The position numbers were made by a program, and so were the translations under genes. The notes under the pieces were generated by a model. The model worked only from the letters and a program-made list of their open reading frames with translations. It was not told the origin of the DNA and ran no database searches. Positions 8,022 to 38,050 of a stretch of DNA of 38,137 bases are shown here, one piece after another (the stretch's first letter is position 1; every line of letters begins with the position of its first letter). The DNA lies in NCBI GenBank assembly GCA_011390645.1, contig JAABRY010000019.1, positions 1 through 38,137 on the forward strand, written 5' to 3'. Source of the DNA: Gemmatimonadota bacterium. GTDB lineage: Bacteria > Gemmatimonadota > Gemmatimonadetes > Gemmatimonadales > GWC2-71-9.

Positions 8022-8045
8022 CAGGGGTGAGGGGTGAGGGGGGGG
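8022..8045. repeat. heptamer array, GGGGTGA x2 with G8
   Basis: Two tandem GGGGTGA units run into a G8 tract. The array follows a short imperfect hairpin (TTCGCGGCTGCTCCGC, 8005-8020). A similar hairpin-plus-array arrangement occurs after ispH at 22319-22363. It lies between pabA and the TetR gene. Confidence 0.75.
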
Positions 8046-8066
8046 AAGTTGGCTCGGTGGAATTTC

Positions 8067-8111
8067 AAAGGTAAAAGGTGAACCGGGTCCCCCTCCCTTT
8101 CACCTTTCACG
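8067..8111. repeat. inverted pair of AAAGGTG-type heptamer arrays
   Basis: The left arm (8067-8082) holds AAAGGTA and AAAGGTG units. The right arm (8096-8111) holds two CTTTCAC units, the reverse complement. The spacer is about 13 bp of C/G-rich sequence. Base pairing gives a stem of about 12 bp without a T-tract. The right arm contains the stop codon of pabA and its last codons. Confidence 0.8.
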
Positions 8112-8705
8112 ACGCGCGGCCGCAGGCCGCCTCCCCCTCACTCCCGCCACCCACCGCCGGATCATCCCCAACCCGCCCTCCGTCAAGAGCGCCTCCGGAT
8201 GAAACTGCACCCCCTCGAGCGGCCACTGGCGGTGGCGGATCCCCATCAGCTCGCCATCGTCCTCGGACCAGGCCGTACCGACGAGCTCGGGGGGAAGCGT
8301 CGACTCGCGGACCACCAACGAGTGGTAGCGCGTGGCGTCGAAGGGGGACGGGAGTCCGGTGAAGACACCGCGCCCGTCGTGGCGTACCGGTGACGTCATG
8401 CCATGGCGGGGCGCGACCGCCCGGACCACCTCGGCCCCGAGCGCAGCGGCAATGATCTGGTGGCCGAGGCAGACACCCAGGATCGGGACCGTCGGGCCGA
8501 ATGCGCGAACCACCTCAAGCGAGAGTGGTGCCTCGGCGGGGGTACATGGTCCGGGCGACAGGACGATGCCGTGCGGCGACATCCGCTGGATCGCTTCGAT
8601 GGAGAGGTCCCGGGTACGGACGACCGCGGCGGGCGCACCAGTTTGCCGCAGGTAGTCTGCCAGGGTGTACACGAACGAGTCGTCATGATCGAGCACCAGG
8701 ATCAT
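8100..8705 (-). CDS. pabA: aminodeoxychorismate synthase, glutamine amidotransferase subunit
   Basis: A 201-residue class I glutamine amidotransferase that supplies ammonia to PabB for 4-aminobenzoate (folate) synthesis. The start motif is LVLDHDDSFVYTLADYL, then an oxyanion segment LSPGPCTPAEA. The nucleophile is C79 in GVCLGHQ and the catalytic pair is H169 and E171 in VQFHPEA. Length is normal for PabA/TrpG. The pairing with a PIKGT-type PabB favours aminodeoxychorismate over anthranilate synthesis, although PabA can serve both. Its ATG overlaps the pabB stop as ATGA. The C-terminal RER and TGA stop are encoded by the adjacent GTGAAAG heptamer array, so the natural end of the gene appears to have been replaced by repeat sequence. 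Confidence 0.93.
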   Translation of the reverse strand: MILVLDHDDSFVYTLADYLRQTGAPAAVVRTRDLSIEAIQRMSPHGIVLSPGPCTPAEAPLSLEVVRAFGPTVPILGVCLGHQIIAAALGAEVVRAVAPRHGMTSPVRHDGRGVFTGLPSPFDATRYHSLVVRESTLPPELVGTAWSEDDGELMGIRHRQWPLEGVQFHPEALLTEGGLGMIRRWVAGVRGRRPAAARRER

Positions 8706-10105
8706 GGATCCACCGAGAGTGCGGCGATGATGCCGCGCGCCTTGTCGAGGGTCTCCCGGTACTCATCCACAGGAACGGAGCGGGCGGTGATCCCCCCCCC
8801 AGCGTGGACGACCGCCGTGCGTCCCGCGAGAGTCATCGTCCGAATCGCGACACTGAGCATCATGCCACCGTCGAGCCCGAGCCAGCCGATCGCTCCGCAA
8901 TAGACGCCCCGCGCCACCGGTTCCAGTTCAGCGATCACCTCCATGGCACGAAGTTTCGGTGCGCCGGTGATCGATCCACCGGGGAAGGTGGCGTGCAGCA
9001 GGTCGAGGGCATCGCAGGCCGGTGCCAACACCGCCGTGACGGTGCTCACGAGGTGATGTACTGTCGGGTGCACTTCGGCGGCATGCAGCGCGGGAACATC
9101 GATCGAGCCTGTCTGCGCCACTCGGGCCAGGTCGTTGCGGAGGAGGTCGACGATCATCACATTCTCGGCCCGATCCTTCACGCTCGCCACGAGCTCATCG
9201 CGCAGTTGTGCATCCTCCTCCGGACAGCGGCCGCGCGGCCGGGTGCCCTTGATCGGGCGCGTCTCGATACGTCGGGTCACCGGATCATACCGCAGGAAGA
9301 GCTCCGGCGAGACGCTCAGCACCACATGTGGCGCGTGATCGAGATAGGCCGCAAGCGCAGCAGGCGTGCGGTCCCGCAGGGCCTGATAGAGCGCCAGTGC
9401 GGTACCAGGCCACTCGGCGCTGAAGCGTTGGGCGATATTGGCCTGGAAGAGATCGCCCGCGAGGATCAAGTCGACCACGCGCTGCACGGCGGCTTGATAG
9501 TGCTCCGGGGTGAAGTCGCCGTGCAGCGCTTTGGGTGCGTGGGCAAAGGCGCTGATGGGGACCTGACCATGGGCTGTGGAGGTCCCAGCCGCTGCAGGTC
9601 GCTGGGGGGGGGCATCACCGGCGATGTCGCTGAGGCGGCGCGCGAGCCGCGCCTCCGCCCGCTGGCGTGAGGCCTCACCAGTGGGGTCAATCCCCGTACT
9701 GAGTAGCCACGCCTGATCGGTGAGGTGATCCCACGCCACCACGGTGTCGTACAAACCGAGCGCGACGGCGGGCGCACCAAGGTCGTCGAGTGCAGGAGGC
9801 GGCTGGCGATCGAAAGCGCGACCGAGTTCGTAGCCGAACCATCCGATCCACCCTCCTGCAAACGGCGGCAGCTCCTCCGGATGCTCGCGAGGCTGGAGGG
9901 TCGCCCGGAGCGCCGGTTCGACCGTGGGCCAATCCTCAGGGGCGGCGTGGATGACGTGCACCGGATCCCAGGCCAGATAACTCCAGCGGCCGAGGTCGGC
10001 GTGATCCGCCACCCCCTCGAGCAGGACGGGGTAGGGATGTCCCGCGACGCGCGCGAGGAGTTCCACAGGATCAGGGGGGGGGACGAGCTGGAGTGCCCGC
10101 GTCAC
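8702..10105 (-). CDS. pabB: aminodeoxychorismate synthase component I
   Basis: 467 residues if it starts at the GTG at 10105, eleven bases after the dehydratase gene. The frame is open a further 25 codons into that gene, but with no protein-like sequence. The protein converts chorismate and ammonia to 4-amino-4-deoxychorismate. The N-terminal half is the anthranilate-synthase-I-like domain (FAGGWIGWFGYELGRAF). The C-terminal chorismate-binding domain includes DLFQANIAQRF, PIKGTRPRG (K286, the lysine that marks PabB rather than TrpE, which has Ala), KDRAENVMIVDLLRNDL, FPGGSITGAPK and GGGITARS. There is no fused PabC lyase domain and no pabC nearby. Three G/C nine-base homopolymers lie inside the gene (8792, 9604, 10074). 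Confidence 0.93.
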   Translation of the reverse strand: MTRALQLVPPPDPVELLARVAGHPYPVLLEGVADHADLGRWSYLAWDPVHVIHAAPEDWPTVEPALRATLQPREHPEELPPFAGGWIGWFGYELGRAFDRQPPPALDDLGAPAVALGLYDTVVAWDHLTDQAWLLSTGIDPTGEASRQRAEARLARRLSDIAGDAPPQRPAAAGTSTAHGQVPISAFAHAPKALHGDFTPEHYQAAVQRVVDLILAGDLFQANIAQRFSAEWPGTALALYQALRDRTPAALAAYLDHAPHVVLSVSPELFLRYDPVTRRIETRPIKGTRPRGRCPEEDAQLRDELVASVKDRAENVMIVDLLRNDLARVAQTGSIDVPALHAAEVHPTVHHLVSTVTAVLAPACDALDLLHATFPGGSITGAPKLRAMEVIAELEPVARGVYCGAIGWLGLDGGMMLSVAIRTMTLAGRTAVVHAGGGITARSVPVDEYRETLDKARGIIAALSVDP

Positions 10106-10116
10106 CCCACTGGTGT

Positions 10117-10473
10117 TCAGGGCTTGATCCACCCCTCCGCCTGTCCCTCGAGGCCTGGGAAGCCGCCGTTCGGGCGCCACTGCACCGTCGCCTCGATCCG
10201 CTCGGCGAGCTGGAGGTCCTTCTCGCTCACTCCGCCGGCCGAGTGCGTCTGCAGGCGCACCTCGACATGATCGTAATGCACGGAAAGGTCGGGGTGGTGA
10301 TTCCCCGCTTCGGCCAGGAACGCGATAGCGCCGACCACGAGTTGGGTGCTGCGCCAGCCGTCGGTCTGGTAGGTGCGGACCAGCCAGCCGTCGGTGAATT
10401 GCCAGCCCCCGCCGATGGCGGCAAGGCGTGGTGCGGCGGAGTCGGCAGTGAAGAGCGGTTCGTTGGTGCCCAT
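10117..10473 (-). CDS. pterin-4a-carbinolamine dehydratase
   Basis: 118 residues, the usual size for the PCD/DCoH family. It dehydrates 4a-hydroxytetrahydropterins. The signature runs GNHHPDLSVHYDHVEVRLQT, with H59 and H60 and with H77 in QTHSAGG, then VSEKDLQLAERIE. A GGAGG lies four bases before the ATG. In bacteria without aromatic-amino-acid hydroxylases these proteins are often linked to folate or molybdopterin metabolism. The position here, between the 6-pyruvoyl-tetrahydropterin synthase homologue and pabB, supports a folate/pterin role. No phenylalanine hydroxylase gene is present in the window. Confidence 0.93.
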   Translation of the reverse strand: MGTNEPLFTADSAAPRLAAIGGGWQFTDGWLVRTYQTDGWRSTQLVVGAIAFLAEAGNHHPDLSVHYDHVEVRLQTHSAGGVSEKDLQLAERIEATVQWRPNGGFPGLEGQAEGWIKP

Positions 10474-10501
10474 TTGTCCTCCAGGCTCGGGATGCTGGAA
10501 G

Positions 10502-11050
10502 CTAGTCCAACCGCTCGCTGTAGGTCGCCGATTGCCCGAAGGACTCCTCGACCTCGATCTCGAGGAAGGTCAGCTTCGCGCCCTCCGCAGCCAGGTCGTC
10601 GCGCACGTTGATGGCGAGCCACTCCGCGATCATCTCGGCCGTCGTGTTCGCAATCGGCATCATGGCGCAGTCCTTGGTCGGGAACTGGTAGGTCTGCACC
10701 CCGAAATATTCGACGAAGGTCATCGTGCCCTCCTCTCGGAAGGCCACCTTCGGGTTCTTCGTGGGCAGCAGCACCCGATGGTCGATCTGATCCACGTATC
10801 GTCGGACGATCCGCTTGAGGATGGCGAAGTCCACGACGAAGAGGCATTCGTCATCGATCGGTCCTTCGACGGTCACACCAATCCGGTAGTTGTGCCCATG
10901 CAGGGACTCGCAGGTGTGTCCCCGGAAGGTGATGAAATGGGCCGACGAAAAGACCAGGTAATCCTTGCTCACCGAAACGCGAAACGTCCCCACGGCCAGC
11001 TCCGAGTGCTTGATGCCTCGCGGCGCACCGTAGCGCCGCGCGACCAACAT
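10502..11050 (-). CDS. 6-pyruvoyl-tetrahydropterin synthase / QueD family enzyme with Cys-Glu active site
   Basis: 182 residues from the ATG at 11050; the open frame upstream of it is not protein-like. Zinc ligands are H38 (SSAHF), H51 and H53 (LHGHNY), and ANTTAEMIAEWL and FLEIEVEES are conserved family segments. The active-site motif is C47-E48-S-L-H-G-H. It contains both the cysteine of QueD-type enzymes (CxxxHGH) and the glutamate of PTPS-III enzymes (ExxHGH), which make 6-hydroxymethyl-dihydropterin and bypass FolB. The folate gene neighbourhood supports a FolB-bypass or dual queuosine/folate role. It heads the operon with the dehydratase, pabB and pabA. Confidence 0.88.
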   Translation of the reverse strand: MLVARRYGAPRGIKHSELAVGTFRVSVSKDYLVFSSAHFITFRGHTCESLHGHNYRIGVTVEGPIDDECLFVVDFAILKRIVRRYVDQIDHRVLLPTKNPKVAFREEGTMTFVEYFGVQTYQFPTKDCAMMPIANTTAEMIAEWLAINVRDDLAAEGAKLTFLEIEVEESFGQSATYSERLD

Positions 11051-11077
11051 ACCTCTACGTCCACGGTGAGAACAGGT

Positions 11078-11093
11078 GTCCACAGATGTGGAC
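11078..11093. promoter_or_regulatory. 16-bp palindrome in a divergent promoter region
   Basis: GTCCACAGATGTGGAC has 7-bp perfect arms around GA. It lies 28 bp upstream of the pterin/folate operon start (minus) and 112 bp upstream of the Asp-Arg repeat gene (plus), a position suited to a shared operator. The binding protein is unknown. Confidence 0.45.
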
Positions 11094-11204
11094 GCTCTGG
11101 TACTATCACCAAAACTGTATCTCTTTTTGTTGCAACGAGTTGCGTTCTGGCACGGCACTGGCACACGCATGGGGGCAACGATCGACCCTTTCTGGAGGTG
11201 TTCC

Positions 11205-11762
11205 ATGCGATTTGTTCCGTTGGCGGCCACCACTCTCGCGGCCCTTGCCCTCCTCGCGCAACCGGCCAGCGCGCAGGTATCGGCGAGGATTCTACTCGAC
11301 ATCCCGATTCTCGGAGGCAATCGTCGGCCGGCCGTCGTGCACCGCGCGCCCCCGCCGAGTCGCGTGATCGTCGTTCACGACTACAACTCGCGCCGGCATG
11401 GCAACTGGAAGAAGGACGCACGCGACTGGCGTCCGGTCACGCTGTACCTGTACGGGGGGCGCTACTACTCCAGTCCGATGCGTGGCGGCCGTCAGGTGAC
11501 GGTCTACAACTATCGCAACCAGTACTTCCAGGCGCCCCGCGATCGTGGCTGGGATCAATACCGCAATCGCTATGAGCGGGATGATTGGCGGCGCTGGAAT
11601 GATCGACGGGACGATCGTTGGGACGATCGTTGGGATGATCGCCGCGACGACCGGTGGGACGACCGCCGTGATGATCGGCGTGATGACCGTCGCGATGATC
11701 GGCGTGACGACCGCCGAGATGATCGGCGTGACGATCGATTCAATGGCAGGTCGAGGCAGTAG
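11205..11762 (+). CDS. secreted protein with Asp-Asp-Arg tetrapeptide repeats
   Basis: 185 residues from the ATG at 11205, with GGAGG six bases upstream. The signal peptide (MRFVPLAATTLAALALLAQP) probably cleaves at ASA-Q near residue 23. The middle part is rich in Tyr, Arg and Asn (VTLYLYGGRYYSS, VTVYNYRNQYFQAP). Residues 132-179 are twelve tandem tetrapeptides of the form DDR(R/W). The strictly alternating acidic and basic charges suggest a disordered, possibly polyelectrolyte or metal/polyphosphate-binding tail outside the cell. Similar Arg/Asp-rich tails occur in small secreted proteins of unknown role. It is divergent from the pterin operon. Confidence 0.75.
   Translation: MRFVPLAATTLAALALLAQPASAQVSARILLDIPILGGNRRPAVVHRAPPPSRVIVVHDYNSRRHGNWKKDARDWRPVTLYLYGGRYYSSPMRGGRQVTVYNYRNQYFQAPRDRGWDQYRNRYERDDWRRWNDRRDDRWDDRWDDRRDDRWDDRRDDRRDDRRDDRRDDRRDDRRDDRFNGRSRQ
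11598..11741 (+). repeat. twelve 12-bp tandem coding repeats (DDRR/DDRW)
   Basis: Tandem 12-base units of the pattern GAYGAYCGNYGN encode DDRR or DDRW. Synonymous differences are scattered among the units, while the amino acids stay constant apart from the R/W alternation and the end units. That suggests selection on the peptide rather than very recent duplication. The repeat is long enough to allow slippage in steps of four residues. Confidence 0.85.
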
Positions 11763-11797: not shown

Positions 11798-11845
11798 GTG
11801 AAAGGTGACTCGGATGCGATCCATGCACCCGTTTCACCTTTCACG
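11798..11845. repeat. inverted pair of GTGAAAG heptamer arrays
   Basis: GTGAAAGGTGA (11798-11808) and TTTCACCTTTCACG (11832-11845) face each other across about 23 bp. The element fills the gap between two convergent genes (Asp-Arg repeat protein and SDR), where a bidirectional terminator would be expected. Confidence 0.82.
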
Positions 11846-12766: not shown

Positions 12767-12808
12767 TCTCGCCTCAATTGGTGATAACGTCCGGGGTCAA
12801 TATAAGGC

Positions 12809-12916
12809 GTTGGTCGTCAGTCGTTGGGGGTTGGTCGTTAGGGGAGGTGGCTTGCCACGGTCGTGTCCCGGCGACCGGAAGTCCCTGACAACTCACGCCT
12901 AACGACTCACGACTCT
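12809..12916. repeat. GTTGGTC/GTCGTNR heptamer arrays in a divergent promoter region
   Basis: The left block (12809-12844) reads GTTGGTC, GTCAGTC, GTTGGGG, GTTGGTC, GTTAGGG. The right block (12888-12916) reads CTCACGC, CTAACGA, CTCACGA, CTC, which is roughly its reverse complement (TCGTTAGG against CCTAACGA). It occupies the space between the divergent SDR and helicase genes, so any helicase promoter must overlap it. Confidence 0.75.
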
Positions 12917-12924
12917 CCAGCCGC

Positions 12925-12930
12925 TATCTT
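12925..12930 (+). promoter_or_regulatory. -10 box (TATCTT) six bases before the helicase start
   Basis: TATCTT, six bases (CCTCAG), then the GTG start. No ribosome site can fit, so a leaderless mRNA is likely. No convincing -35 is seen; that position is occupied by the heptamer array. Confidence 0.45.
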
Positions 12931-12936
12931 CCTCAG

Positions 12937-20963: not shown

Positions 20964-20967
20964 GGGC

Positions 20968-21061
20968 GGTGAACGGTGAACGGTGAACGGGGTAGCACGT
21001 GAAACGTGAAAGGTGAAACGGGCGTCATCACGACCCCCCTTTCACCTTTCACCCTTCACCC
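20968..21061. repeat. compound heptamer element (GTGAACG x3, GTGAAAC/G array, inverted CTTTCAC array)
   Basis: Three GTGAACG units (20968-20990), three GTGAAAC/GTGAAAG units (20999-21021), then CTTTCAC, CTTTCAC, CCTTCAC (21038-21061) in inverted orientation. It fills most of the 138-bp gap between two co-oriented genes and ends about 28 bp before the ispH -10 box. Confidence 0.85.
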
Positions 21062-21088
21062 GGTTTCGCCCTCCACCTCGGCTCTGGC

Positions 21089-21094
21089 TAGATT
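21089..21094 (+). promoter_or_regulatory. -10 box (TAGATT) seven bases before the ispH start
   Basis: TAGATT, CCCCTCC, ATG. There is no Shine-Dalgarno sequence, and the spacing predicts a leaderless transcript. Confidence 0.45.
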
Positions 21095-21101
21095 CCCCTC
21101 C

Positions 21102-22316
21102 ATGGAAACCACCTACTTTCGCCGCGGTTTCGGGCTCAAGGCCGAGATCGAGGGTCAGCGCTCCGCCGACTATGCCAGCGAAATCGTCGATGCGATCCGG
21201 TCGCGCGGCAACACGCTCGTGGTCGGGCCCGTGACCTTTCGCCTCGCCCAGGAGTTCGGCTTCTGCTACGGGGTGGATCGGGCCGTGGATTACGCCTATG
21301 AAACTCGCCGCAAGTTCCCGGATCGCCGTTTGATTCTGGTCGGCGAGATCATCCACAACCCCCACGTGAACGACAAGCTCAAGGCGATGGGGATCACCTT
21401 CCTCCAGCACGACCCGGGATCCGACTTCGATTTCAGTGACATCACGGCGGAAGATGTGGTGATCATCCCGGCCTTCGGCGTGACGATGAAGGACTTCACT
21501 CGGCTCCGGGAGATCGGCTGCATTCTGGTGGACACCACCTGCGGCTCGGTGCTCAATGTCTGGAAGCGGGTCGACAGCTACGCCCGCGACGGATTCACCG
21601 CCCTGATCCACGGCAAGCACTACCACGAAGAGACGCAGGCCACGGCGAGCCAGGTGACCAAGCATCCTGGCGGGAAGTACCTCGTGGTGTTCAACATGGA
21701 CGAGGCCCGCCAGGTGCTCGATGTGATCGAGCAGAAGGCCGATCCCGCCGGTCTGATCGAGACTTTCGCCAAGGCGTCGTCGCCGGGCTTCGATTTCACT
21801 CGTGATCTGGAGCGGATCGGCGTGGCCAACCAGACGACCATGCTTTCCGGCGAGTCGCTGGGAATCGCGGCCGAGTTCCGGAAATCACTGGCCGCGCGCT
21901 ATGGCGAGGAGCATATCGGGGAGCACTTCCGATCCTTCGATACCATCTGCTCCGCGACGCAGGAGCGTCAGGACGCGGTGAAGGAGCTCTTGTCCGAGCC
22001 GATCGACATGATGCTGGTGGTCGGGGGATACAACTCGTCGAACACCTGTGCCCTGGCCGCGCTCTCGGAGGACAACGGGGTACGCGCGCTGCACATCGAA
22101 GACGCGGACTGCATCGCCCCGGCCGATCGGACAATTCGGCATCAGCCCGTGCGCACCAAGAGCGAAGTCTCCGAAGCCGATTGGCTCCATGGGGCGACCC
22201 TGATCGGGATCACCGCCGGCGCCTCCACGCCGAACAACAAGGTCGGCGAAACGATCGCGAAGGTGGTGGAGACGATGGGACTCGGCGCTGAGCTCGACGC
22301 GATTCTCGCGGGGTAG
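21102..22316 (+). CDS. ispH: 4-hydroxy-3-methylbut-2-enyl diphosphate reductase, long form
   Basis: 404 residues; catalyses the last step of the methylerythritol-phosphate isoprenoid pathway, giving IPP and DMAPP, with a 4Fe-4S cluster. Cluster cysteines are C55 (FGFCYGVDRA), C147 (DTTCGS) and C283 (TICSATQERQ). GEIIHNPHVN and GGYNSSNTCALA are substrate-binding segments, and ITAGASTPN is at the C-terminus. Length and sequence fit the ~400-residue branch also found in cyanobacteria and plastids rather than the ~315-residue E. coli type. The ATG at 21102 is chosen because the open frame upstream is read through the heptamer arrays. It is monocistronic. Confidence 0.95.
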   Translation: METTYFRRGFGLKAEIEGQRSADYASEIVDAIRSRGNTLVVGPVTFRLAQEFGFCYGVDRAVDYAYETRRKFPDRRLILVGEIIHNPHVNDKLKAMGITFLQHDPGSDFDFSDITAEDVVIIPAFGVTMKDFTRLREIGCILVDTTCGSVLNVWKRVDSYARDGFTALIHGKHYHEETQATASQVTKHPGGKYLVVFNMDEARQVLDVIEQKADPAGLIETFAKASSPGFDFTRDLERIGVANQTTMLSGESLGIAAEFRKSLAARYGEEHIGEHFRSFDTICSATQERQDAVKELLSEPIDMMLVVGGYNSSNTCALAALSEDNGVRALHIEDADCIAPADRTIRHQPVRTKSEVSEADWLHGATLIGITAGASTPNNKVGETIAKVVETMGLGAELDAILAG

Positions 22317-22318
22317 GG

Positions 22319-22363
22319 GTTCGCGGCTATGCCGCGCGGGGTGAACGGTGAACGGTGAACGGG
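22319..22363. repeat. hairpin plus GTGAACG x3 heptamer array after ispH
   Basis: A 6-bp stem CGCGGC/GCCGCG with a TAT loop (22322-22336) is followed by three GTGAACG units (22341-22363), beginning a few bases after the ispH stop. There is no T-tract. It could act as a terminator or as an mRNA-stabilising end. Confidence 0.8.
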
Positions 22364-23977: not shown

Positions 23978-24054
23978 CGAAAGGTAAAAGGTAAAAGGTG
24001 AAACGGACTGCCGGTGCAGTTCCCTTTCACCTTTCACCTTTCACCTCTCACCCC
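23978..24054. repeat. inverted pair of GTAAAAG/GTGAAAG heptamer arrays
   Basis: The left array (23978-24006) reads GCGAAAG, GTAAAAG, GTAAAAG, GTGAAAC, GG. The right array (24022-24054) reads CCCTTTCAC, CTTTCAC, CTTTCAC, CTCTCAC. A 15-base spacer separates them. The stem could exceed 20 bp with few mismatches, and the right array begins directly after the YceI stop. Confidence 0.85.
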
Positions 24055-27931: not shown

Positions 27932-28034
27932 GGTGAAAGGTGAAAGGTGAAAGGGGACTCCGCCGCAGGATGCCGTGTGCCATGCAGGGTGATGGCGACA
28001 CCGCACCCCGTTTCACCTTTCACGTTTCACCTCA
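27932..28034. repeat. inverted pair of GTGAAAG heptamer arrays with long spacer
   Basis: GTGAAAG x3 plus GG (27932-27955) and CGTTTCAC, CTTTCAC, GTTTCAC (28009-28030) flank a spacer of about 55 bp. The element occupies almost the whole gap between tag and dnaE2, both on the minus strand, so the dnaE2 promoter must lie in or beyond it. The tag stop TGA touches the right array. Confidence 0.83.
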
Positions 28035-28550: not shown

Positions 28551-28553
28551 TTG

Positions 28554-28635
28554 AGTCGTTAGTCGTGAGTCGTGAGTCGTTCGTACACCAGCCGGCGGCG
28601 TCAGCCGCCGGGACGTCGTAGGTCGTAGGTCGCGG
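28554..28635. repeat. GTCGTNR heptamer arrays flanking a perfect hairpin
   Basis: AGTCGTT, AGTCGTG, AGTCGTG, AGTCGTT (28554-28581) is followed by the hairpin CCGGCGGC-GTCA-GCCGCCGG (28592-28611), then GTCGTAG, GTCGTAG, GTCGCGG (28614-28634). It lies in the divergent region between tag and the quinone oxidoreductase gene and begins four bases from the tag start codon. Confidence 0.85.
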
Positions 28636-28712
28636 GGTGCTGGATTCCCCAAGCGAAACCGAAGATACACCGAATATCGAGGGCGCGCGAGGGGTTAGAC
28701 TCAGAGGTCGTC

Positions 28713-28738
28713 CTCTGTTCTCCGTTCTCTGTTCTCGG
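28713..28738 (+). repeat. CTCTGTT/CTCCGTT heptamer array upstream of the oxidoreductase
   Basis: CTCTGTT, CTCCGTT, CTCTGTT, CTCGG. It ends eight bases before the ATG of the quinone oxidoreductase gene, where a ribosome site would normally be. The unit is unrelated in sequence to the GTGA types but has the same seven-base period. Confidence 0.75.
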
Positions 28739-28746
28739 ATCTCCTC

Positions 28747-29718
28747 ATGCTTGCCCTCACCCACCCGACCCCCAATCAGTCACTCCTCCTGGAGCACCCC
28801 GATCCCGTGCCCGGGCCGGGGGAGATCCTCGTGCGGGTGCATGCTGCGGGGCTCAATCGGGCCGATCTGGTGCAGAAGGCGGGGAAATACCCCGCCCCGC
28901 CGGGGTGGCCGGCCGACATCCCTGGGCTTGAATACGCCGGTGAGGTGATGGCGCTGGGGGCCGGGGCCGAGCGCTGGGCGATTGGCGACCGGGTGATGGG
29001 GCTGGTCGGCGGCGGGGCCCACGCCGAGCGGGTGGTGGTCCACGAGGACGAGGCGATGGCGGTGCCACCGGGGTTGGCATGGACCGATGCGGCCGCGATT
29101 CCGGAGGCCTTCCTCACCGCGTGGGATGCGATGGTGTTGCGCGGTCGCGTGGGGGGGGGAGAGCGTGTGCTCTTCCACGCGGTCGGGAGCGGTGTCGGCA
29201 CCGCGGCAGTACAGGTGGCCGAGCTGCTCGACGTCACGCTGATCGGCACGTCGCGCACGCCGGAGAAGCTGGCGCGCTGCGCCGCGATGGGGATGGCGCA
29301 CGGTGTACTCACGACGGAGGGTGACTGGCCGTTGCAGGTCGGCGGTGCGGTTGATGTCATCATCGACACGCTCGGCGCGAAGTTCCTGACCCAGAACCTG
29401 AATCTGCTCGCCCCGCGCGGCCGATTGGTGGTGCTCGGCACCCTCACGGGCGGCATGGCCGACACGCTCGACATGGGGCTGATCCTGCGGCGGCGCCTGG
29501 AGATCATCGGCACCGCGATGCGGTCGCGTGAGCTGGCTGAGCGACGCGAACTGGTCGCACGCTTCAGCGTGGAAGTCTTGCCGCACTTCATCTCGGGGGC
29601 GCTCCGTCCGATTGTGGACCGCGTGGTACGGTTGGCAGACTTCGAGGAAGCCCACGCTGCGATGGCGGAGAATGAGACGTTCGGGAAGGTGGTCTTGGAG
29701 GTGAGGGGTGAGGGGTGA
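28747..29718 (+). CDS. zinc-independent quinone oxidoreductase (PIG3-like MDR)
   Basis: 323 residues. It is a medium-chain dehydrogenase/reductase of the NADPH:quinone oxidoreductase group. The N-terminal catalytic domain has AAGLNRADLVQKAGKYPAPP and PGLEYAGEV. The Rossmann domain has HAVGSGVGTAAVQVAELL and GTSRTPEKLARC; the Ser/Arg after the second strand favours NADPH. Structural and catalytic zinc ligands are absent, as in this subfamily. The last residues (RGEG) and the TGA stop come from the GTGAGGG heptamer array that follows, so the original C-terminus seems to have been replaced. One nine-G tract (29151-29159) lies before the cofactor motif. Confidence 0.92.
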   Translation: MLALTHPTPNQSLLLEHPDPVPGPGEILVRVHAAGLNRADLVQKAGKYPAPPGWPADIPGLEYAGEVMALGAGAERWAIGDRVMGLVGGGAHAERVVVHEDEAMAVPPGLAWTDAAAIPEAFLTAWDAMVLRGRVGGGERVLFHAVGSGVGTAAVQVAELLDVTLIGTSRTPEKLARCAAMGMAHGVLTTEGDWPLQVGGAVDVIIDTLGAKFLTQNLNLLAPRGRLVVLGTLTGGMADTLDMGLILRRRLEIIGTAMRSRELAERRELVARFSVEVLPHFISGALRPIVDRVVRLADFEEAHAAMAENETFGKVVLEVRGEG

Positions 29719-29726
29719 GGGGGGGC
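29700..29726 (+). repeat. GTGAGGG heptamer array at a gene end
   Basis: Three GGTGAGG-phase units followed by G7. The second unit supplies the stop codon of the quinone oxidoreductase gene. The array abuts the palindromic element at 29727. Confidence 0.85.
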
Positions 29727-29828
29727 GTCATCCCGAGCAGAGCGAGGGATCTCCACGCCGTCTGAGCGCGATACCCTCGCTTGGTGCTGTGGGCACCCCC
29801 GGAGATCCCTCGCTACGCTCGGGATGAC
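29727..29828. repeat. 102-bp intergenic copy of the CATCCCGAGCG palindromic element
   Basis: Outer arms GTCATCCCGAGC (29727-29738) and GCTCGGGATGAC (29817-29828) and inner arms GCGAGGGATCTCC (29742-29754) and GGAGATCCCTCGC (29801-29813) are perfect. It is the same family as the two copies within dnaE2. It sits directly between two heptamer arrays. Confidence 0.92.
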
Positions 29829-29836
29829 AGCTTACG

Positions 29837-29857
29837 ACCTCCAACCTCCAACCTCCA
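29837..29857 (+). repeat. ACCTCCA x3 heptamer array
   Basis: Three exact ACCTCCA units, followed by GCATCCA, in the leader of the ABC-F gene about 25 bp before its ATG. Confidence 0.8.
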
Positions 29858-29882
29858 GCATCCAGCACGTACCGAGCCCCAG

Positions 29883-31382
29883 ATGACGAGTCTCCGCCTC
29901 TCCGACGTCGCCTTCCGCTTCCATGCCGCCGAGCCCGTGCTCGACGGTGTGACCGCACATGCCCCCGCCGGGTGGACTGCGGTCGTCGGACCGAACGGCG
30001 CGGGCAAGACCACCATGCTGCGCCTGATCGCCGGGGCACTCGTGCCGGATGCGGGCACGATCGTCGTGGAGCCACGCGGTGCGGTTATACGGTACTGTCC
30101 GCAGGAGGTGGCCTCATGCACGCCCGACGTACGGGCTTTTGCCGAGGCGATGGATGGAGCATCCGTGCGGATGCGCGGGTGGATGCACCTCGATCCGGAC
30201 GCTCTCCCGCGCTGGGAGACGCTCTCGCCCGGCGAGCGGAAGCGCTGGCAGGTGGGCGCCGCGCTGGCGATCGAACCGGACCTGCTGTTGCTCGACGAAC
30301 CGACCAACCACCTTGACAGCTCGGCGCGCGAGTGGCTTCTCGACGTGCTGTCGCGCTTTCGAGGCGTGGGAGTCGTCATATCGCACGATCGCGACCTGAT
30401 GGATCGGTTGGCGACCCAGGTGTGGCGGCTCGACCACGGCCAGCTCACGAGCTACCGCGGCGGTTGGACCTCAGCGCGGGCCCAGTGGGAGGCGGAGCGG
30501 ACAACCCATCAGGAGGCGCGCGAGGCGGCCAAGATGGCGCGCGACCGCGCAGCCGAGCGACTCGATCGCACGCGCCGTGATCGTCAGTCCGCCGAGGGGC
30601 AGCGGAACGCCGGTCGGCGGATGAAGGACAAGCATGATAGCGATGCGCGCGGGCTCGGAGCAGACTTCGCGGCAGCCCGTGCAGAGCGGTCACTGGGCCG
30701 GAACGTCACGACGCAGCGTCGCGAGCTGGAGGCCGCGGAGGCGCGGTTGGGAACGCACGAGGCACGACGTGAGGTCGGGCGGTCGCTCTTCGTGGAATGG
30801 GCGCCGCCGCCGAAGACCGTGCTCGCCACCTTGCCCTCGTCCACCATCATGCTCGGCCCGTCGCGTGCCCTGGATGCGAGCGCGGTCGCGCTCACCCGCG
30901 ACACGCGGGTGCGCCTCGACGGACCCAATGGCGCCGGGAAGACCACGCTGCTCGGCGCACTCGTGGCCGGCTTGCACATTCCGCGCGAGCGCGTGCTCTG
31001 GTTGCCGCAGGATATTCCGGCAGGGGAGGCCACCCAGCTGCTCGCCGGAACGCGCTCCCTCCCGCCGGAGGTGCGCGGCCGCGTGCTGCAACTGGTGGCG
31101 GCGCTCGGCGTTGAGCCCGAGCGACTCCTCGCGACGGAGCGACCGTCACCCGGCGAAGCGCGCAAGCTGGCACTCGCCCTGGGTCTGGGACAGCACGCCT
31201 GGCTGGTGCTCCTCGACGAACCCACCAATCACCTCGACCTGCCGGCGATCGAGCGATTGGAGGAGGCACTCGTCGCCTACCCGGGTGCACTGGTGGTCGT
31301 GTCCCACGATCCGCTATTCGGGCTGGAGGCAGTGCATGAACGGTGGGTGATTCGGGAGGGTCGGGTGGGCCGAGAACGGTGA
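29883..31382 (+). CDS. ABC-F family ATPase
   Basis: 499 residues from the ATG at 29883; the open frame upstream reads through the palindrome and heptamers and is not used. Two ABC domains without membrane segments define a soluble ABC-F protein, a group that acts on ribosomes or in antibiotic resistance. Domain 1 has Walker A GPNGAGKTT (36-44), signature LSPGE (114-118, usually LSGGQ) and Walker B LLLLDEPTNHLD. Domain 2 repeats GPNGAGKTT, a degenerate signature RPSPGEARK and LLDEPTNHLD. The linker (about 215-310) is highly charged and helical, as expected for the segment that reaches towards the peptidyl-tRNA. The final RER and TGA stop are donated by the GTGAACG array. Confidence 0.88.
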   Translation: MTSLRLSDVAFRFHAAEPVLDGVTAHAPAGWTAVVGPNGAGKTTMLRLIAGALVPDAGTIVVEPRGAVIRYCPQEVASCTPDVRAFAEAMDGASVRMRGWMHLDPDALPRWETLSPGERKRWQVGAALAIEPDLLLLDEPTNHLDSSAREWLLDVLSRFRGVGVVISHDRDLMDRLATQVWRLDHGQLTSYRGGWTSARAQWEAERTTHQEAREAAKMARDRAAERLDRTRRDRQSAEGQRNAGRRMKDKHDSDARGLGADFAAARAERSLGRNVTTQRRELEAAEARLGTHEARREVGRSLFVEWAPPPKTVLATLPSSTIMLGPSRALDASAVALTRDTRVRLDGPNGAGKTTLLGALVAGLHIPRERVLWLPQDIPAGEATQLLAGTRSLPPEVRGRVLQLVAALGVEPERLLATERPSPGEARKLALALGLGQHAWLVLLDEPTNHLDLPAIERLEEALVAYPGALVVVSHDPLFGLEAVHERWVIREGRVGRER

Positions 31383-31524
31383 ACGGTGAACGGTGAACGG
31401 TTAGGGGTGAGGGGTGAGGGGTGAGGGGTGAGGGGTGCAATATCCAAGATCCAGCATCCGCCTCAACCAACGACCAACGACTAACGACTAACGACCTACG
31501 ACCTACGACTAACGACCTACGACC
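31374..31524 (+). repeat. 150-bp mosaic of four heptamer families
   Basis: The order is GTGAACG x4 (31374-31400), GGGTGAG x5 (31401-31437), ATCCAAG/ATCCAGC/ATCCGCC (31442-31462), then about eight units CAACGAC, TAACGAC and CTACGAC (31466-31524). It is the longest array in the window and fills the gap between the ABC-F and DUF6122 genes. It contains the ABC-F stop codon and ends two bases before the DUF6122 start. Confidence 0.9.
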
Positions 31525-31525
31525 A

Positions 31526-34181: not shown

Positions 34182-34303
34182 AGTGAACGGCGATTGGTGA
34201 TTGGTGATTGGTGAATGATGAACGGGGCGGTCGGACGCTCCCCCGTTTCACGTTTCACCTTTCACGTTTCACCCATTGACCTATGACCTATGACCTCTGA
34301 TCC
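34182..34303. repeat. compound heptamer element (GATTGGT x3, inverted TTTCACG/C x4, CTATGAC x2)
   Basis: It begins with one GTGAACG unit and GATTGGT x3 (34191-34212) with GTGAATGATGAACGG. The right part is TTTCACG, TTTCACC, TTTCACG, TTTCACC (34245-34272), then CTATGAC, CTATGAC, CTCTGAT (34280-34301). Three unit families therefore occur in one 256-bp gap, between the serine hydrolase and GLPGLI genes. The rest of the gap (34304-34431) shows no motif beyond CTTGACC (34347-34353), a weak -35 candidate. Confidence 0.82.
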
Positions 34304-34431: not shown

Positions 34432-35238
34432 ATGATTCGTGCCGCCGCCCTTTGGGCCGTGATGGTTGGACTACCCGGGGTGGCAATCGGCCAGTCCGGA
34501 ACAGTGCGGTACGACCAGGCGACCAGGTTGGATTTCAATCTCCCGGCCGGCATGGCTCGGAATCCCGAGTTTCTGGCGAACTTGCCCAAGAACACGGTCA
34601 AGCCGATGCAGTTGCAGTTCAACACCGAGGCGGCGCTCTTCTCGCCGTCCGCCGGAGGGGCCGAGCGCCCGGGTGGGGTTGAGGTCGCCGAGATCCGGGT
34701 GATGGGCGACGGCGCCGTGCGGACCGAGCGCATCTCCCCCGAGATGATCCAGATGGGACGGATGATGGGCTTCATGGGGGGCGGCGCCTCCGATGCCGTG
34801 GCCGGCGCGTACACCGACCTCTCGGATGAGAGCTATGTCGAAGTCCGCGAGTTCCTGGGCCGCACCTTCCGGATCCCTGAGGAGCGGCCGGCCTTCGCGT
34901 GGAAGCTGACCGGCGAGACCGCCTCGTTCCTCGGGTATCCCGTGTATCAGGCGATCGCGACCCAGGACAGCACCACCCTCGAGGCGTGGTTCACGCCGGA
35001 CATCCCTGTGCCCGCGGGTCCTGCACAGTACGGCGGGTTGCCCGGGCTGATCCTGACGCTGGCCGTGGATTCGAATCGTGTGGTCTATACCGCGACGGCC
35101 GTCGACACGACGACGCCGGTTGCAACGCTCAAGGCGCCGTCCGATGGCAGCAAGGTCACCCGGGCAGAGTACGACAAGATTGTCGCGGAGAAGCAGGAAG
35201 AACTGGCGCGGTCACGTCGCGGTCGGCGGAACCAGTAA
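34432..35238 (+). CDS. GLPGLI-family exported protein
   Basis: 268 residues from the ATG at 34432, with GGAG about eight bases before it. The signal peptide is MIRAAALWAVMVGLPGVAIG. The family motif QYGGLPGLIL is near residue 200, preceded by LGYPVYQAIATQDSTTLEAW and FTPDIPVPAGP. It is known mainly from Bacteroidota, where GLPGLI proteins are encoded beside TonB-receptor-like proteins, exactly as here with a one-base gap. The role is unknown. The N-terminal third has an unusual Met/Gly-rich stretch (MIQMGRMMGFMGGG), which could bind metal. Confidence 0.9.
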   Translation: MIRAAALWAVMVGLPGVAIGQSGTVRYDQATRLDFNLPAGMARNPEFLANLPKNTVKPMQLQFNTEAALFSPSAGGAERPGGVEVAEIRVMGDGAVRTERISPEMIQMGRMMGFMGGGASDAVAGAYTDLSDESYVEVREFLGRTFRIPEERPAFAWKLTGETASFLGYPVYQAIATQDSTTLEAWFTPDIPVPAGPAQYGGLPGLILTLAVDSNRVVYTATAVDTTTPVATLKAPSDGSKVTRAEYDKIVAEKQEELARSRRGRRNQ

Positions 35239-35239
35239 G

Positions 35240-38029
35240 ATGACCACCTCTTCGATGCTGCGACGTGCAGCCTATGCCATGCTGGTGCTCCTCGGCGGCA
35301 TTGCCGCGCGTCCCGCCGCAGCGGCGGCCCAGCAGTTCGACGTCCGAGGTGTCGTCGTGGATTCGGCCAAGGCGCCGGTCACCGGTGCCATGGTCGTTGC
35401 CCTGACGCGAACCGATTCGGTCATCGCCGCGTTCGCCACGTCTGGCGGGTCGGGCGGCTACATCCTGCGGCGCCTGACGCCGGGTGACTACATCCTGCAG
35501 GTCACTCGCATCGGCTCGAAGCCGGTCCGCCGTGACTTCACGCTCGGGAACGCCAACTTCACGGCCGACACCGTCGTGATGCTGGAGAGCGGACCGGTCG
35601 AGCTCGCCGAGCTCACGGTCAGCGCCGAGCACATCCCGATCGTGAACAAGCCCGACACGCTCGAGTACAATGCCGACGCCTTCAAGACGCGCATCAACGC
35701 GAGCGTCGAGGAACTCCTGAAGCGGCTGCCCGGCGTGACGGTCGAGAGCGACGGCACGATCACGGCACAGGGCAAGCAGGTGCAGCAGGTTCTCGTCGAT
35801 GGCAAGGAATTCTTCGGCAATGACCCGAAGATGGCGACGCGCAACCTGCCCGCCGCCGCAATCGACAAGGTGCAAGTGCTGGACAGGAAGTCCGACGCCG
35901 CAGAGTTCACGGGGATTGATGACGGGCAGGAGATCACCACGGTCAACCTGGTGCTCAAGCCGAACGCGCGGGTGGGCTACTTCGGGCGCGCGGTCGGTGG
36001 TGCCGGACCAGCGCCGGATGCCGACGTGGCGTTCGCGGGTTCCAAGGGTGATGATCCGCGCTACACCGGCGCGCTCAACCTGAACCGGTTCTCCCCCGAG
36101 ACGCAGCTCTCGATCATCGGCAACCGCAACAACGTCGGGCAGTCCGGTTTCTCGATCGGGCAGCCGGTCGCGATGGGCGGCGGGCGGGGCGGCGGCGGCG
36201 CGGGGAGTCTCGGCAGCGGCTTCAGCGAGACGATGGCGATCGGCCTCAATGGCAGCCGCCAGTTCGCGAAGAACAGCTGGCTGCGCGGCAGCTACTTCTT
36301 GAGCACCGGCGACAACCGGCAGCAGGCGACGACCGACGAACAGCTCCTGCTGGGTTCCGCCGTCTCGGCGAACCGGAACGAGCTCGCGACGTCGCAGTCG
36401 GACAACGTGTCGCATCGGCTCAACCTGAACGCCCAGCATCAGTTCAATGATTGGAACCAGCTCCGCTTCCGCGGCAACTTCAACGCGGGCAACAACACCT
36501 CGAGCAGCTTCTCCCAGCAGGAGACACTGCGGCCCGACGGCAGCTTCCAGAACAGTGCGATCTCGCGCGTCGCCACCGACGGCGACAACCTGAGTGGCGA
36601 TGGCCGATTCACGTACTCGAAGCGGTTCAATCAGGCCGGTCGCTCGCTGATCGCCGAGGCATGGGGCGACCTCAGCGAGCCGGACCAGTTCTCCAACCTG
36701 AATTCGAGCACGGACATCGCGAATGGTCAGGGTGGCGTCATCACCCGGGACATCCTGCAGACCCAGCGCCGCGAGAGCCAGACCTTCACCTACGGTCAGC
36801 GTCTGGCCTTGACCGAGCCGCTCGGCAACGGGGCGGTGCTCGAGATCTTCGGCCAGCGCCGGGCAATCTCCGAGGACCAGAACTACGACGTGCGGGACCT
36901 GGTTGACGGCGCCGAGGTGCCGAACACCGACCTCAGCCGGGCGTTCGAGCGGACCTACACCTACCTGCAGGGCGGGACGCGGTTCAGCCGCAACACCGCC
37001 GCGCTGCGGTGGGTGGTCGGGCTCGAGGTGCAGTCGTCCGACCTGCAAGGCACGATCATCGGTCGGGACGAGTCGATCGACAACGGCTTCACCAACGTCT
37101 TGCCCTCGGCGAACATGCGCTACCAGTTCAATCAGGGCAGCAACTTCACGCTGAACTACCGGACCTCGACCCGCGATCCGTCGCTCAACGAGCTCCAGCC
37201 GTTCGTGGACAACACCGATCCGCTCCGCATCTACGCGGGCAATCCGGACCTCACGCCGCAGTTCCAGCACAACCTGCGCGCCGACTTCCGCCGCTTCGAT
37301 CAGTTCACGTTCCGGAACATCTACCTGTTCGCGAACGTGAGCCACAACCGGAACCAGATCGTGCAGTCGCGCCTTGTGGATGACCAGGGCCGCCAGACGG
37401 TGATGCCGGTCAATCTCGGCAACGGTTGGAACGGCAGCATTGGCGGGAGCTATGGCACGCCGATCCGTTCCCTCGGCGCGCAGGTGGACCTCGAGTACAA
37501 CTACTCGCGCTCGCTGAGCCAGGAGCTCGTGAACAACGTCGTCAACGAGAGCCGCACCGCCAACCACAACATCGGACTGCGGGTGCAGAACCGGTCGAAG
37601 GAGGTCTTCGACCTCAATGCCGGCGCGCGGTGGGGCTTCAACGATGTCGCCTACTCGATCAACAGCGCCCTCGACCAGAACTACCTGAACAGCACGTACT
37701 ACGGTGAAGGCACCTGGTTCGTCAATGAGGCGTGGTCCGCGAACGCCTCCGCGAACTACCAGGTATTCGACCAGAACCTGTTCGGGCCGCGTGACAACAT
37801 CATGATGGTCGGGGCGTCGATTGGTCGGCAGATGTTCGACAACCGTGGTGAGATCCGGATCTACGGCGTCGACTTGCTGAACGAGAACAACGGGATCAGC
37901 ATCACCAGCTCGAGCAGCTTCATCCGCGAGCGCCAGTCGCCGACGCTCGGTCGCCGAGTGATGGTGCAGTTCTCCTACCAACTCGGCTCGAACCTCGCAC
38001 CTCCGGGTGGCGGCGGGCGGCGGCGGTAG
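35240..38029 (+). CDS. TonB-receptor-like outer-membrane protein with carboxypeptidase-regulatory-like domain
   Basis: 929 residues from the ATG at 35240. Signal peptide with cleavage near AAAQQ (about residue 32). A carboxypeptidase-regulatory-like domain (about 33-115; FDVRGVVVDSAKAPVTGAMV) is followed by a plug-like region (SVEELLKRLPGVTVESDGTI, then VLVDGKEFFGNDP, NLPAAAIDKVQVLD). A long beta-barrel follows with many Asn/Gln-rich strands. This is the outer-membrane-beta-barrel branch paired with GLPGLI proteins. No TonB box is obvious, so TonB-dependent import is uncertain. The C-terminus ends in GGGGRRR beyond the last strand VMVQFSYQL, which is unusual. It is probably co-transcribed with the GLPGLI gene. 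Confidence 0.88.
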   Translation: MTTSSMLRRAAYAMLVLLGGIAARPAAAAAQQFDVRGVVVDSAKAPVTGAMVVALTRTDSVIAAFATSGGSGGYILRRLTPGDYILQVTRIGSKPVRRDFTLGNANFTADTVVMLESGPVELAELTVSAEHIPIVNKPDTLEYNADAFKTRINASVEELLKRLPGVTVESDGTITAQGKQVQQVLVDGKEFFGNDPKMATRNLPAAAIDKVQVLDRKSDAAEFTGIDDGQEITTVNLVLKPNARVGYFGRAVGGAGPAPDADVAFAGSKGDDPRYTGALNLNRFSPETQLSIIGNRNNVGQSGFSIGQPVAMGGGRGGGGAGSLGSGFSETMAIGLNGSRQFAKNSWLRGSYFLSTGDNRQQATTDEQLLLGSAVSANRNELATSQSDNVSHRLNLNAQHQFNDWNQLRFRGNFNAGNNTSSSFSQQETLRPDGSFQNSAISRVATDGDNLSGDGRFTYSKRFNQAGRSLIAEAWGDLSEPDQFSNLNSSTDIANGQGGVITRDILQTQRRESQTFTYGQRLALTEPLGNGAVLEIFGQRRAISEDQNYDVRDLVDGAEVPNTDLSRAFERTYTYLQGGTRFSRNTAALRWVVGLEVQSSDLQGTIIGRDESIDNGFTNVLPSANMRYQFNQGSNFTLNYRTSTRDPSLNELQPFVDNTDPLRIYAGNPDLTPQFQHNLRADFRRFDQFTFRNIYLFANVSHNRNQIVQSRLVDDQGRQTVMPVNLGNGWNGSIGGSYGTPIRSLGAQVDLEYNYSRSLSQELVNNVVNESRTANHNIGLRVQNRSKEVFDLNAGARWGFNDVAYSINSALDQNYLNSTYYGEGTWFVNEAWSANASANYQVFDQNLFGPRDNIMMVGASIGRQMFDNRGEIRIYGVDLLNENNGISITSSSSFIRERQSPTLGRRVMVQFSYQLGSNLAPPGGGGRRR

Positions 38030-38031
38030 GC

Positions 38032-38050
38032 AGCGAACAGCGAACAGCGG
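38032..38050 (+). repeat. AGCGAAC x2 heptamer array
   Basis: AGCGAAC, AGCGAAC, AGCGG, directly after the stop of the TonB-receptor-like gene. Confidence 0.6.

What the first reader, a model, noticed from the sequence alone, without database searches (positions are those of the whole stretch)
8022..38050. A family of intergenic tandem arrays whose unit is always seven bases but whose sequence varies
At least fifteen gaps carry 2-8 tandem units of exactly seven bases: 8022, 8067, 11798, 12809, 20968, 22341, 23978, 27932, 28554, 28713, 29700, 29837, 31374, 34182 and 38032. The units fall into several families: GTGAAAG/GTAAAAG, GTGAACG, GTGAGGG, GTCGTNR or its complement NYACGAC, ACCTCCA, ATCCANN, CTCTGTT, GATTGGT, CTATGAC and AGCGAAC. 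Different families sit side by side in one gap (31374-31524). A constant period with changing sequence argues against simple slippage of one ancestral repeat. It suggests a mechanism that measures seven bases. Cyanobacterial short tandemly repeated sequences, also heptameric, are the nearest known parallel; I know of no description of this mosaic.
Basis: partly seen in the sequence, partly recalled or inferred. Interest (0 to 1): 0.85.

Follow-up and report, generated by a model that had tools for sequence, protein, structure and literature searches.

The report
Heptamer-armed hairpins at gene ends
In the sampled part of this soil bacterium's genome, many gaps between genes hold hairpins whose arms are built from repeated seven-letter DNA words; a close relative has hairpins made of different words in six of the gaps that could be compared, and some more distant relatives mostly use eight-letter words.

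Summary
In 448 kb of this Gemmatimonadota MAG (G000) there are 136 period-7 arrays, against 0-5 at each of periods 5, 6 and 8-11. An exact-run scan of 304 kb found 70, shuffles 0.4; 93 of 104 fuzzy arrays were intergenic.

Of 46 two-armed gaps, 45 have all G-rich arrays before all C-rich ones, none the reverse; relative G214 shows 19 of 19. Arms of one gap match better than arms of different gaps (0 of 10,000 permutations in each genome). Arrays favour convergent gaps (21 of 28) over divergent ones (10 of 46) and lie a median 5.5-7 nt from stop codons.

Seven is not universal: three relatives have mainly octamers. Of 7 orthologous gaps with arrays in both G000 and G214, none shares its unit; in 6 both arms differ together. 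Words are nested, outer ones tending to be those common in G214.

Best reading: turnover-prone hairpin elements in the 3'-end slot. Function, and what sets 7 or 8, are unproven.

The parts
8023..8041 (+). G arm, GTGAGGG family
8067..8083 (+). G arm, GTAAAAG/GTGAAC, short
8096..8110 (-). C arm, CTTTCAC (GTGAAAG on the minus strand)
11798..11809 (+). short G arm, GTGAAAGGTGA
11832..11845 (-). C arm TTTCACCTTTCAC, partner of 11798
12809..12842 (+). degenerate G arm, GTCGTNR family
12891..12915 (-). C arm, ACTCACG/CTAACGA, partner of 12809
20967..20990 (+). outer G arm, GTGAACG
20997..21020 (+). inner G arm, GTGAAAS
21021..21037 (.). short (17-nt) loop
21038..21060 (-). C arm, TTTCACC
22340..22362 (+). 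one-armed G array, GTGAACG
23980..24005 (+). G arm, GTAAAAG/GTGAAAC
24023..24052 (-). C arm, CTTTCAC
   Evidence: hairpin z -5.4
27932..27954 (+). G arm, GTGAAAG x3
27955..28008 (-). 54-nt core, one of nine related copies found in the sampled genome
28009..28032 (-). C arm, TTTCAC x3; the orthologous gap in G214 holds GTCGTGA arms instead
28552..28580 (+). outer G arm, GTCGTKR
28615..28632 (+). G arm, GTCGTAG
28709..28744 (-). C arm, CTCTGTT/CTCCGTT (GAGAACR)
29700..29722 (+). G arm, GTGAGGG; by my gene calls it supplies the stop codon of the gene 28747-29718
29723..29830 (.). loop holding the TCATCCCGAGC...GGGATGA palindromic repeat
29837..29864 (-). C arm, ACCTCCA/ATCCAGC
31374..31401 (+). 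outer G arm, GTGAACG
31399..31437 (+). inner G arm, GTGAGGG
31466..31525 (-). C arm, NYACGAC words; does not pair well with the G arms
34183..34215 (+). G arm, GTGAACG then GTGATTG
34244..34272 (-). C arm, CGTTTCAC
34277..34300 (-). outer C arm, CTATGAC
38031..38049 (+). one-armed G array, GCGAACA, just after the called gene end at 38029

Best explanation
Many of the arrays are the arms of short hairpin elements in the 3'-end (terminator-like) slot of intergenic gaps. SHOWN in the samples: the first arm is G-rich and the second C-rich, read on either strand; the innermost arms of a gap usually use the same word and pair; for the commonest word, GTGAAA plus C or G, loops fall into a short class (15-22 nt) and a long class (53-61 nt); arrays lie near stop codons and favour convergent gaps; in six compared gaps a close relative has the same two-armed architecture with a different matched pair of words; words are nested, and outer ones tend to be those common in that relative. 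INFERRED: the hairpin acts as a two-way transcription terminator or mRNA 3'-end block, as stem-loops and REP-type elements are thought to do; foldback at the site is kept while the word is free to change; new elements arrive in, or replace, the middle of old ones, and copies spread within a genome, so that each lineage has its own dialect. Repeat slippage would keep arms tandem, and a lineage-specific step, 7 or 8, is set by unknown machinery.
For: Polarity: 45 of 46 two-armed gaps all G before all C, 0 reversed, 1 mixed; G214 19 of 19; adjacent array pairs in other genomes 14:1 at period 7 and 15:1 at period 8. Pairing: own-arm score 16.0 against 10.2 for other gaps, 0 of 10,000 permutations; G214 14.2 against 6.9, 0 of 10,000; innermost words match in 51 of 64 gaps, permutation mean 25 and maximum 37. 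Loops: 41 GTGAAA...TTTCAC pairs, 23 at 15-22 nt, 14 at 53-61, 4 elsewhere; C-first control 2. Arms 93% identical between nine long-loop copies, cores 63%, shuffled cores 47%. Position: convergent 21 of 28, codirectional 48 of 134, divergent 10 of 46 (convergent against divergent p=9e-6, against codirectional p=2e-4); medians 5.5 and 7 nt from stop codons, 20 and 35 from start codons. Turnover: 7 orthologous gaps with arrays in both genomes, 0 share a unit; in 6 both arms differ together. In one of these (L025 3965-4165) both elements lie between a stop codon and a TTGACA-17-TAAAAT box shared by the two genomes. Nesting: words outside GTGAAAS 24 times, inside 4; ring rank against abundance in G214, Spearman -0.77, p=0.014, 9 hand-made families.
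Against: Nothing here shows transcription, termination or mobility. No T-tract: mean 2.4 T in the 8 nt after the best stem. Array-free hairpins give mixed signs on polarity: in G000 G>C 25, G<C 13 (convergent 4 and 1), in relatives' convergent gaps 4 and 9, so a general hairpin rule neither explains nor excludes the G-first rule. The gap 31383-31525 does not fold better than shuffles (z +0.96). By the array detector 23 gaps have only G arrays and 10 only C arrays. Outermost words matched in 0 of 33 multi-layer gaps, which nesting of intact two-armed elements would not predict. Codirectional against divergent gaps is not significant (p=0.10). Conservation of position is not significant in 11 orthologous gaps (p=0.15), and the gap before lytB has arrays in the window but in only 1 of 8 congeneric loci, with another word. 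For words other than GTGAAA a hexamer-pair test showed no clean loop classes and many C-first pairs (single hexamers, so mostly background). Only nine long loops match the core. GTGAAA arrays occur in G012 but not in the G214 sample, so inner words are not simply lineage-specific. In the octamer genomes many arrays fall inside called genes (9 of 13, 24 of 47 with duplicates, 7 of 17) and in G206 the few intergenic ones do not show left-G/right-C; pairing of octamer arms was not tested by permutation.
Confidence: 0.5

Rival explanations
1. Slippage only: a DNA polymerase that grips 7 (or 8) bases makes tandem duplications of that length wherever selection allows, mostly between genes; no function.
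For: Heptanucleotide repeats are the commonest long class in many genomes, and this was proposed by Mrazek 2007 as reported in PMC4679880 (section read). Explains the fixed period with free sequence, intergenic location and lineage-specific densities.
Against: Does not predict G-first polarity symmetric about the gap (45 of 46), matched words in separate arms, two loop classes for GTGAAA, a core shared between arms of different loci, or both arms differing together between relatives.
Confidence: 0.17
2. Operator arrays: each word is a site for a cooperative DNA-binding protein with a 7- or 8-bp step, as recalled for the omega repressor (heptads) and MetJ (octamers); the protein would set the ruler.
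For: GTGAAA is near-invariant while the seventh base is C or G; arms are far more conserved than cores; steps of 7 and 8 both occur.
Against: Nine hand-made word families in one genome, of which several share GTGA or GTCGT but others (GGATGTT, GAGAACR) do not, and different words in a close relative would need several proteins or one almost blind to sequence. The omega and MetJ comparison is from memory; no such protein family was searched for.
Confidence: 0.1
3. G-quadruplex elements, as proposed by Rehm et al. 2015 for GGGAATC and GGGGA(C/T)T heptamers.
For: Polarity and location as described there (PMC4692102; abstract, passages and sections 11, 13, 16 read); many units here hold GG.
Against: GTCGTGA/GTCGTTA words have no GG, yet they fill the same slot in G214; GTGAAAG offers only two-G tracts; the arms pair with each other.
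Confidence: 0.07
4. Healed breaks: a break in the gap exposes two 3' ends that both receive G-rich repeats, like two telomeres joined head to head.
For: Predicts G-first polarity on both strands, equal words on both sides of the newest junction and older words outside.
Against: A telomerase-like enzyme is unlikely: no RVT_1 reverse transcriptase in 8 of 9 array-rich genomes, G000 (86% complete) among them. Does not explain stop-codon proximity or the shared core.
Confidence: 0.08
5. Classical REPIN transposition by a RAYT tyrosine transposase.
For: Dispersed copies with a related core and conserved arms resemble REPINs (PMC3116915, abstract and outline read).
Against: Y1_Tnp is found in array-rich (7 of 9) and array-poor (9 of 13) genomes alike; the one G000 match (L013) is flanked by palindromes that are not heptamer arrays.
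Confidence: 0.08

Closest known systems
G-rich heptameric repeats of Xanthomonas (GGGAATC) and Nostoc (GGGGA(C/T)T), Rehm et al. 2015, PMC4692102
   Same: 7-nt unit, mostly intergenic, G-strand array close to the 5' neighbouring gene whatever its direction, close to stop codons, inverted pairs (70 and 75 cases in two Xanthomonas genomes), few in divergent gaps, length and sequence variation between close relatives at the same site.
   Different: There one repeat type per genome was studied and read as quadruplexes, and Nostoc had few inverted pairs; here nine hand-made word families in one genome, matched arms, loop classes, nesting, both arms differing together between relatives, and octamer relatives.
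TAACTGA direct repeats of Beggiatoaceae, Cyanobacteria and Bacteroidetes (MacGregor 2015, PMC4679880) and cyanobacterial STRRs
   Same: Heptamer period, mostly intergenic, mixed heptamers in Microcystis and Elizabethkingia, indels in 7-nt steps between two Cyanothece strains.
   Different: In BOGUAY most sets lie just upstream of start codons, 169 direct sets and one indirect repeat; here arrays lie mainly at 3' ends and are often inverted. STRR details are recalled.
REPINs / BIMEs (Bertels and Rainey 2011, PMC3116915)
   Same: Dispersed extragenic inverted doublets that form hairpins. Stem-loops in general prefer convergent gaps and the first 50 bp after stop codons (PMC1590033, passages seen).
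   Different: Arms are tandem heptamers; no link to a RAYT seen.
Long simple sequence repeats (Mrazek et al. 2007, as reported in PMC4679880)
   Same: Heptamers as the dominant long class; the question why 7.
   Different: Arms, polarity and octamer lineages are added here. The original paper was not read.

Membership tests
Rehm-type G-rich heptameric intergenic repeats | unit of 7, mainly intergenic | tested here: met
   for G000; relatives G204, G205, G206 have mainly octamers
Rehm-type G-rich heptameric intergenic repeats | G-strand array nearer to the 5' neighbouring gene whatever its direction | tested here: met
   left-G 68, right-C 55, left-C 13, right-G 9, undecided 1
Rehm-type G-rich heptameric intergenic repeats | G-tracts able to form a quadruplex | tested here: not met
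REPIN/BIME | dispersed inverted doublets forming hairpins | tested here: met
   five of six window gaps folded below shuffles, one did not
REPIN/BIME | association with a RAYT (Y1_Tnp) | tested here: not met
   array-rich 7 of 9, array-poor 9 of 13 genomes; the G000 match is flanked by other palindromes
REPIN/BIME | GTAG or similar tetranucleotide tag | not tested
   no search made
Intrinsic terminators | hairpin close behind stop codons, most often in convergent gaps | tested here: met
Intrinsic terminators | T-tract after the stem | tested here: not met
   mean 2.4 T in the 8 nt after the best stem
Intrinsic terminators | RNA 3' ends formed at the site | not testable with these tools
   no RNA data
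Telomerase-type repeat addition | a reverse transcriptase in the genome | tested here: not met
   no RVT_1 match in 8 of 9 array-rich genomes, G000 (86% complete) among them
Simple sequence repeats by slippage alone | arrays independent of each other | tested here: not met
   arms matched within gaps, 0 of 10,000 permutations in G000 and in G214

The most novel reading that the evidence does not exclude
A self-renewing class of bacterial hairpin elements in which position, foldback, polarity and word length are inherited but the words are not: each lineage overwrites the arms of its gene-end hairpins with its own dialect, adding new rings inside old ones, by a machinery whose step is 7 in some lineages and 8 in others. 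Comparing a 7-lineage with its 8-lineage relatives would identify the molecule that sets the step.
Probability: 0.3. Interest if true: 0.86.

Novelty: new variant of a known kind. Interest (0 to 1): 0.7.

Why it matters
Why heptamers dominate long tandem repeats in many bacteria is an old open question. This phylum offers relatives with a step of 7 and relatives with a step of 8, a polarity rule seen at both, and orthologous gaps where both arms differ together. That turns the question into a comparison of genomes and a test in a reporter, and suggests that gene-end hairpins in such bacteria can have both halves of their stem replaced while the site is kept.

Tried and rejected
Arrays as three-frame stop signals: rejected, because GAGAACR, GGATGTT and several octamer words (CGGGGAAA for one) contain no stop codon on the G strand (read from units). 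Polarity as a general property of gene-end hairpins: unresolved, mixed signs. Telomerase-like reverse transcriptase: not found. RAYT link: not seen. Conserved RNA fold of the core: no support (1 of 27 predicted pairs, arms included, with a two-sided change); model R1 was built but never used in a search. Rfam: no match in the window at gathering thresholds. A survey of 40 further Gemmatimonadota stretches showed arrays to be sporadic: 7 at period 7, 7 at period 8, 14 at period 9 of which 6 in one stretch. A fold of L048:1-100 covered the wrong stretch and is not used. Literature searches listed no paper on octamer relatives, joint arm change or Gemmatimonadota arrays; the lists were capped, only the open-licence part of PubMed Central is held, and Mrazek 2007 and Elhai 2008 (recalled) were not read.

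Count corrections: two contigs were counted twice for G204 (L168 is L049, L165 is L126); removes this. In one search three gaps that were not strictly G-first by word labels were dropped from the innermost-match count. In some searches some relatives appear twice under different locus ids; one search lists distinct gaps of G214 only. Stretches L010, L020, L022-L027 and L084-L087 of G000 were picked because they held GTGAAAG matches, and several G214 stretches because they matched the window, so densities and family shares from those are biased; one search gives the G000 density without them. In one search, 79 of 208 gaps of at least 40 nt carry arrays; one further gap is shorter.


Full report
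WHAT WAS CHECKED. The window is contig 53 of a 2.93-Mb, 295-contig genome. Named relatives of its DNA polymerase III alpha-type gene are mostly Gemmatimonadota MAGs, the best at 74-80% protein identity. Period-7 arrays are real and far beyond chance: 70 against 0.4 expected in 304 kb, 60 in a second set of 144 kb, and 136 against 0-5 at each of periods 5, 6 and 8-11 in all 448 kb at a stricter threshold. They lie mainly between genes: 93 of 104.

ARCHITECTURE. Read gap by gap, G-rich words sit at the left and C-rich words at the right of a gap, whatever the direction of the genes. In 448 kb, 79 of 208 gaps of at least 40 nt carry arrays; 46 gaps have both arms by the detector, and in 45 all G arrays come before all C arrays, in none the reverse. 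The arms of one gap fit each other better than those of other gaps (0 of 10,000 permutations). The close relative G214 repeats this: 19 of 19 two-armed gaps G-first, arms matched (0 of 10,000), convergent 6 of 11 against divergent 2 of 15 (p=0.04), and 62 of 66 arrays outside genes. In other genomes adjacent pairs are G-first 14:1 at period 7 and 15:1 at period 8.

ELEMENT. For the commonest word, GTGAAA plus C or G, the distance between the innermost arms has two classes: 23 of 41 pairs at 15-22 nt and 14 at 53-61 nt. The G arm has exactly three exact words in 22 of 41 pairs, the C arm in 16. Whole-genome pattern counts, which include overlapping registers, are 74 for short and 67 for long loops, with 0 for the reversed control. 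Nine long loops share a core (63% identity, shuffled 47%), while the 22-nt arms beside them are 93% identical, differing mostly in the C-or-G base between words. Other long loops gave no match to the core, and none was convincing in relatives' loci fetched by then (best E 0.19). For other words the same hexamer-pair test gave no clean classes. Of six window gaps folded, three have z below -5, two z -2.4 and -3.3, and one (31383-31525) +0.96.

POSITION. Arrays occupy 21 of 28 convergent, 48 of 134 codirectional and 10 of 46 divergent gaps (codirectional against divergent p=0.10). G arrays nearer the left gene start a median 7 nt from stop codons and 20 nt from start codons; C arrays nearer the right gene end 5.5 and 35 nt away. 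By my gene calls two window genes take their stop codon from the array itself (29718, 31382). In the gap L025 3965-4165 and its ortholog in G214 the element lies between the stop codon (26 nt after it in G000; at once in G214) and a TTGACA-17-TAAAAT box present in both. This is where a terminator belongs, but there is no T-tract. Array-free hairpins show mixed polarity: G>C 25 and G<C 13 in G000, 4 and 9 in convergent gaps of relatives.

STEP LENGTH. Three relatives have mainly octamers: G204 27 octamer against 2 heptamer arrays, G205 14 against 4, G206 13 against 2; G000 has 1 against 136 (Fisher p at most 1.6e-15). Octamer pairs are G-first 15:1. But many octamer arrays fall inside genes as called from these small samples (9 of 13 in G206, 24 of 47 in G204 with duplicates, 7 of 17 in G205), and pairing of their arms was seen by eye only. 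So the mechanism does not measure seven as such; whether octamer arrays share the whole gene-end pattern is open. Most of 40 other Gemmatimonadota stretches hold few arrays, and exact GTGAAAG x3 occurs in 2 of 200 genomes of the phylum.

TURNOVER AND NESTING. Eleven orthologous gaps were compared between G000 and G214: 7 have arrays in both, 2 in neither, 1 in each alone. In none of the 7 is the unit the same; in 6 both genomes have two arms by detector or by eye, and both arms differ together, for example GTGAAAG...CTTTCAC against GTCGTGA...TCACGAC. Two of these six (GTCGTAG against GTCGTGA) involve closely related words. Position alone is not significant with 11 gaps (p=0.15), and before lytB only 1 of 8 congeneric loci has an array. 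Within G000 words are nested: GTGAAAS lies inside other words 24 times and outside 4 times; innermost words of the two arms match in 51 of 64 gaps, outermost words in 0 of 33 multi-layer gaps. Families that lie outside tend to be those common in G214 (Spearman -0.77, p=0.014, nine hand-made families). I read this as growth rings, the newest in the middle; the lack of matched outer rings means that older arms are often lost or were one-sided.

MECHANISM. The best-supported account is a family of hairpin elements in the gene-end slot, kept for their foldback and renewed by replacement. That they stop transcription or protect mRNA ends is inferred from place and shape, as for stem-loops in general (PMC1590033, passages seen). 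How copies spread is unknown: no RVT_1 reverse transcriptase was found in 8 of 9 array-rich genomes, G000 among them, and a RAYT is present with and without arrays.

KNOWN WORK. Rehm et al. 2015 (abstract, passages and sections 11, 13 and 16 read) describe, for one repeat type per genome, the same polarity and stop-codon proximity, and inverted pairs in Xanthomonas, without finding a function. MacGregor 2015 (abstract, passages and sections 3 and 10 read) describes TAACTGA arrays, mixtures of heptamers, 7-nt indels between two Cyanothece strains, and Mrazek's proposal that 7 reflects the polymerase contact. New here, as far as can tell, are matched arms in many words, loop classes, nesting, arms that differ jointly between relatives, and octamer relatives.

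Noticed in passing
window 29723-29830; L028 4053-4196; L069 4434-4526: A palindromic repeat TCATCCCGAGC...GAGGGATCTCC / GGAGATCCCTCGC...GGGATGAC sits as the loop between heptamer arms; one relative (L096, gap orthologous to 12767-12936) carries a similar palindrome without arrays.
   Followed up: partly
L013 15100-15900 (G000 contig 30): A RAYT-like Y1_Tnp match flanked on both sides by REP-like palindromes of the type CGAGCCG..GTCGCTTTAGCGAC, unrelated to the heptamers.
   Followed up: partly
window 11592-11737: Imprecise 12/24/36-nt tandem repeat inside a called gene (11205-11762), periods multiples of three, possibly encoding a repetitive peptide.
   Followed up: no
window 21080-21105 and orthologs in L096-L103: A TATCTT/TAGATT-like -10 box about 10-14 nt before the lytB (ispH) start codon in most of the 8 congeneric loci, suggesting leaderless transcription.
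   Followed up: no
window 38070-38100: CCTGAGCGTAGTCGAAGGG, a short quasi-palindrome resembling one in another spacer (L086 about 9620, CCTGAGCGAAGCGAAGGG).
   Followed up: no
L049 (G204 contig 366): One 14.5-kb contig carries 19 octamer arrays of several different words, denser than the other fetched contigs of that genome.
   Followed up: partly
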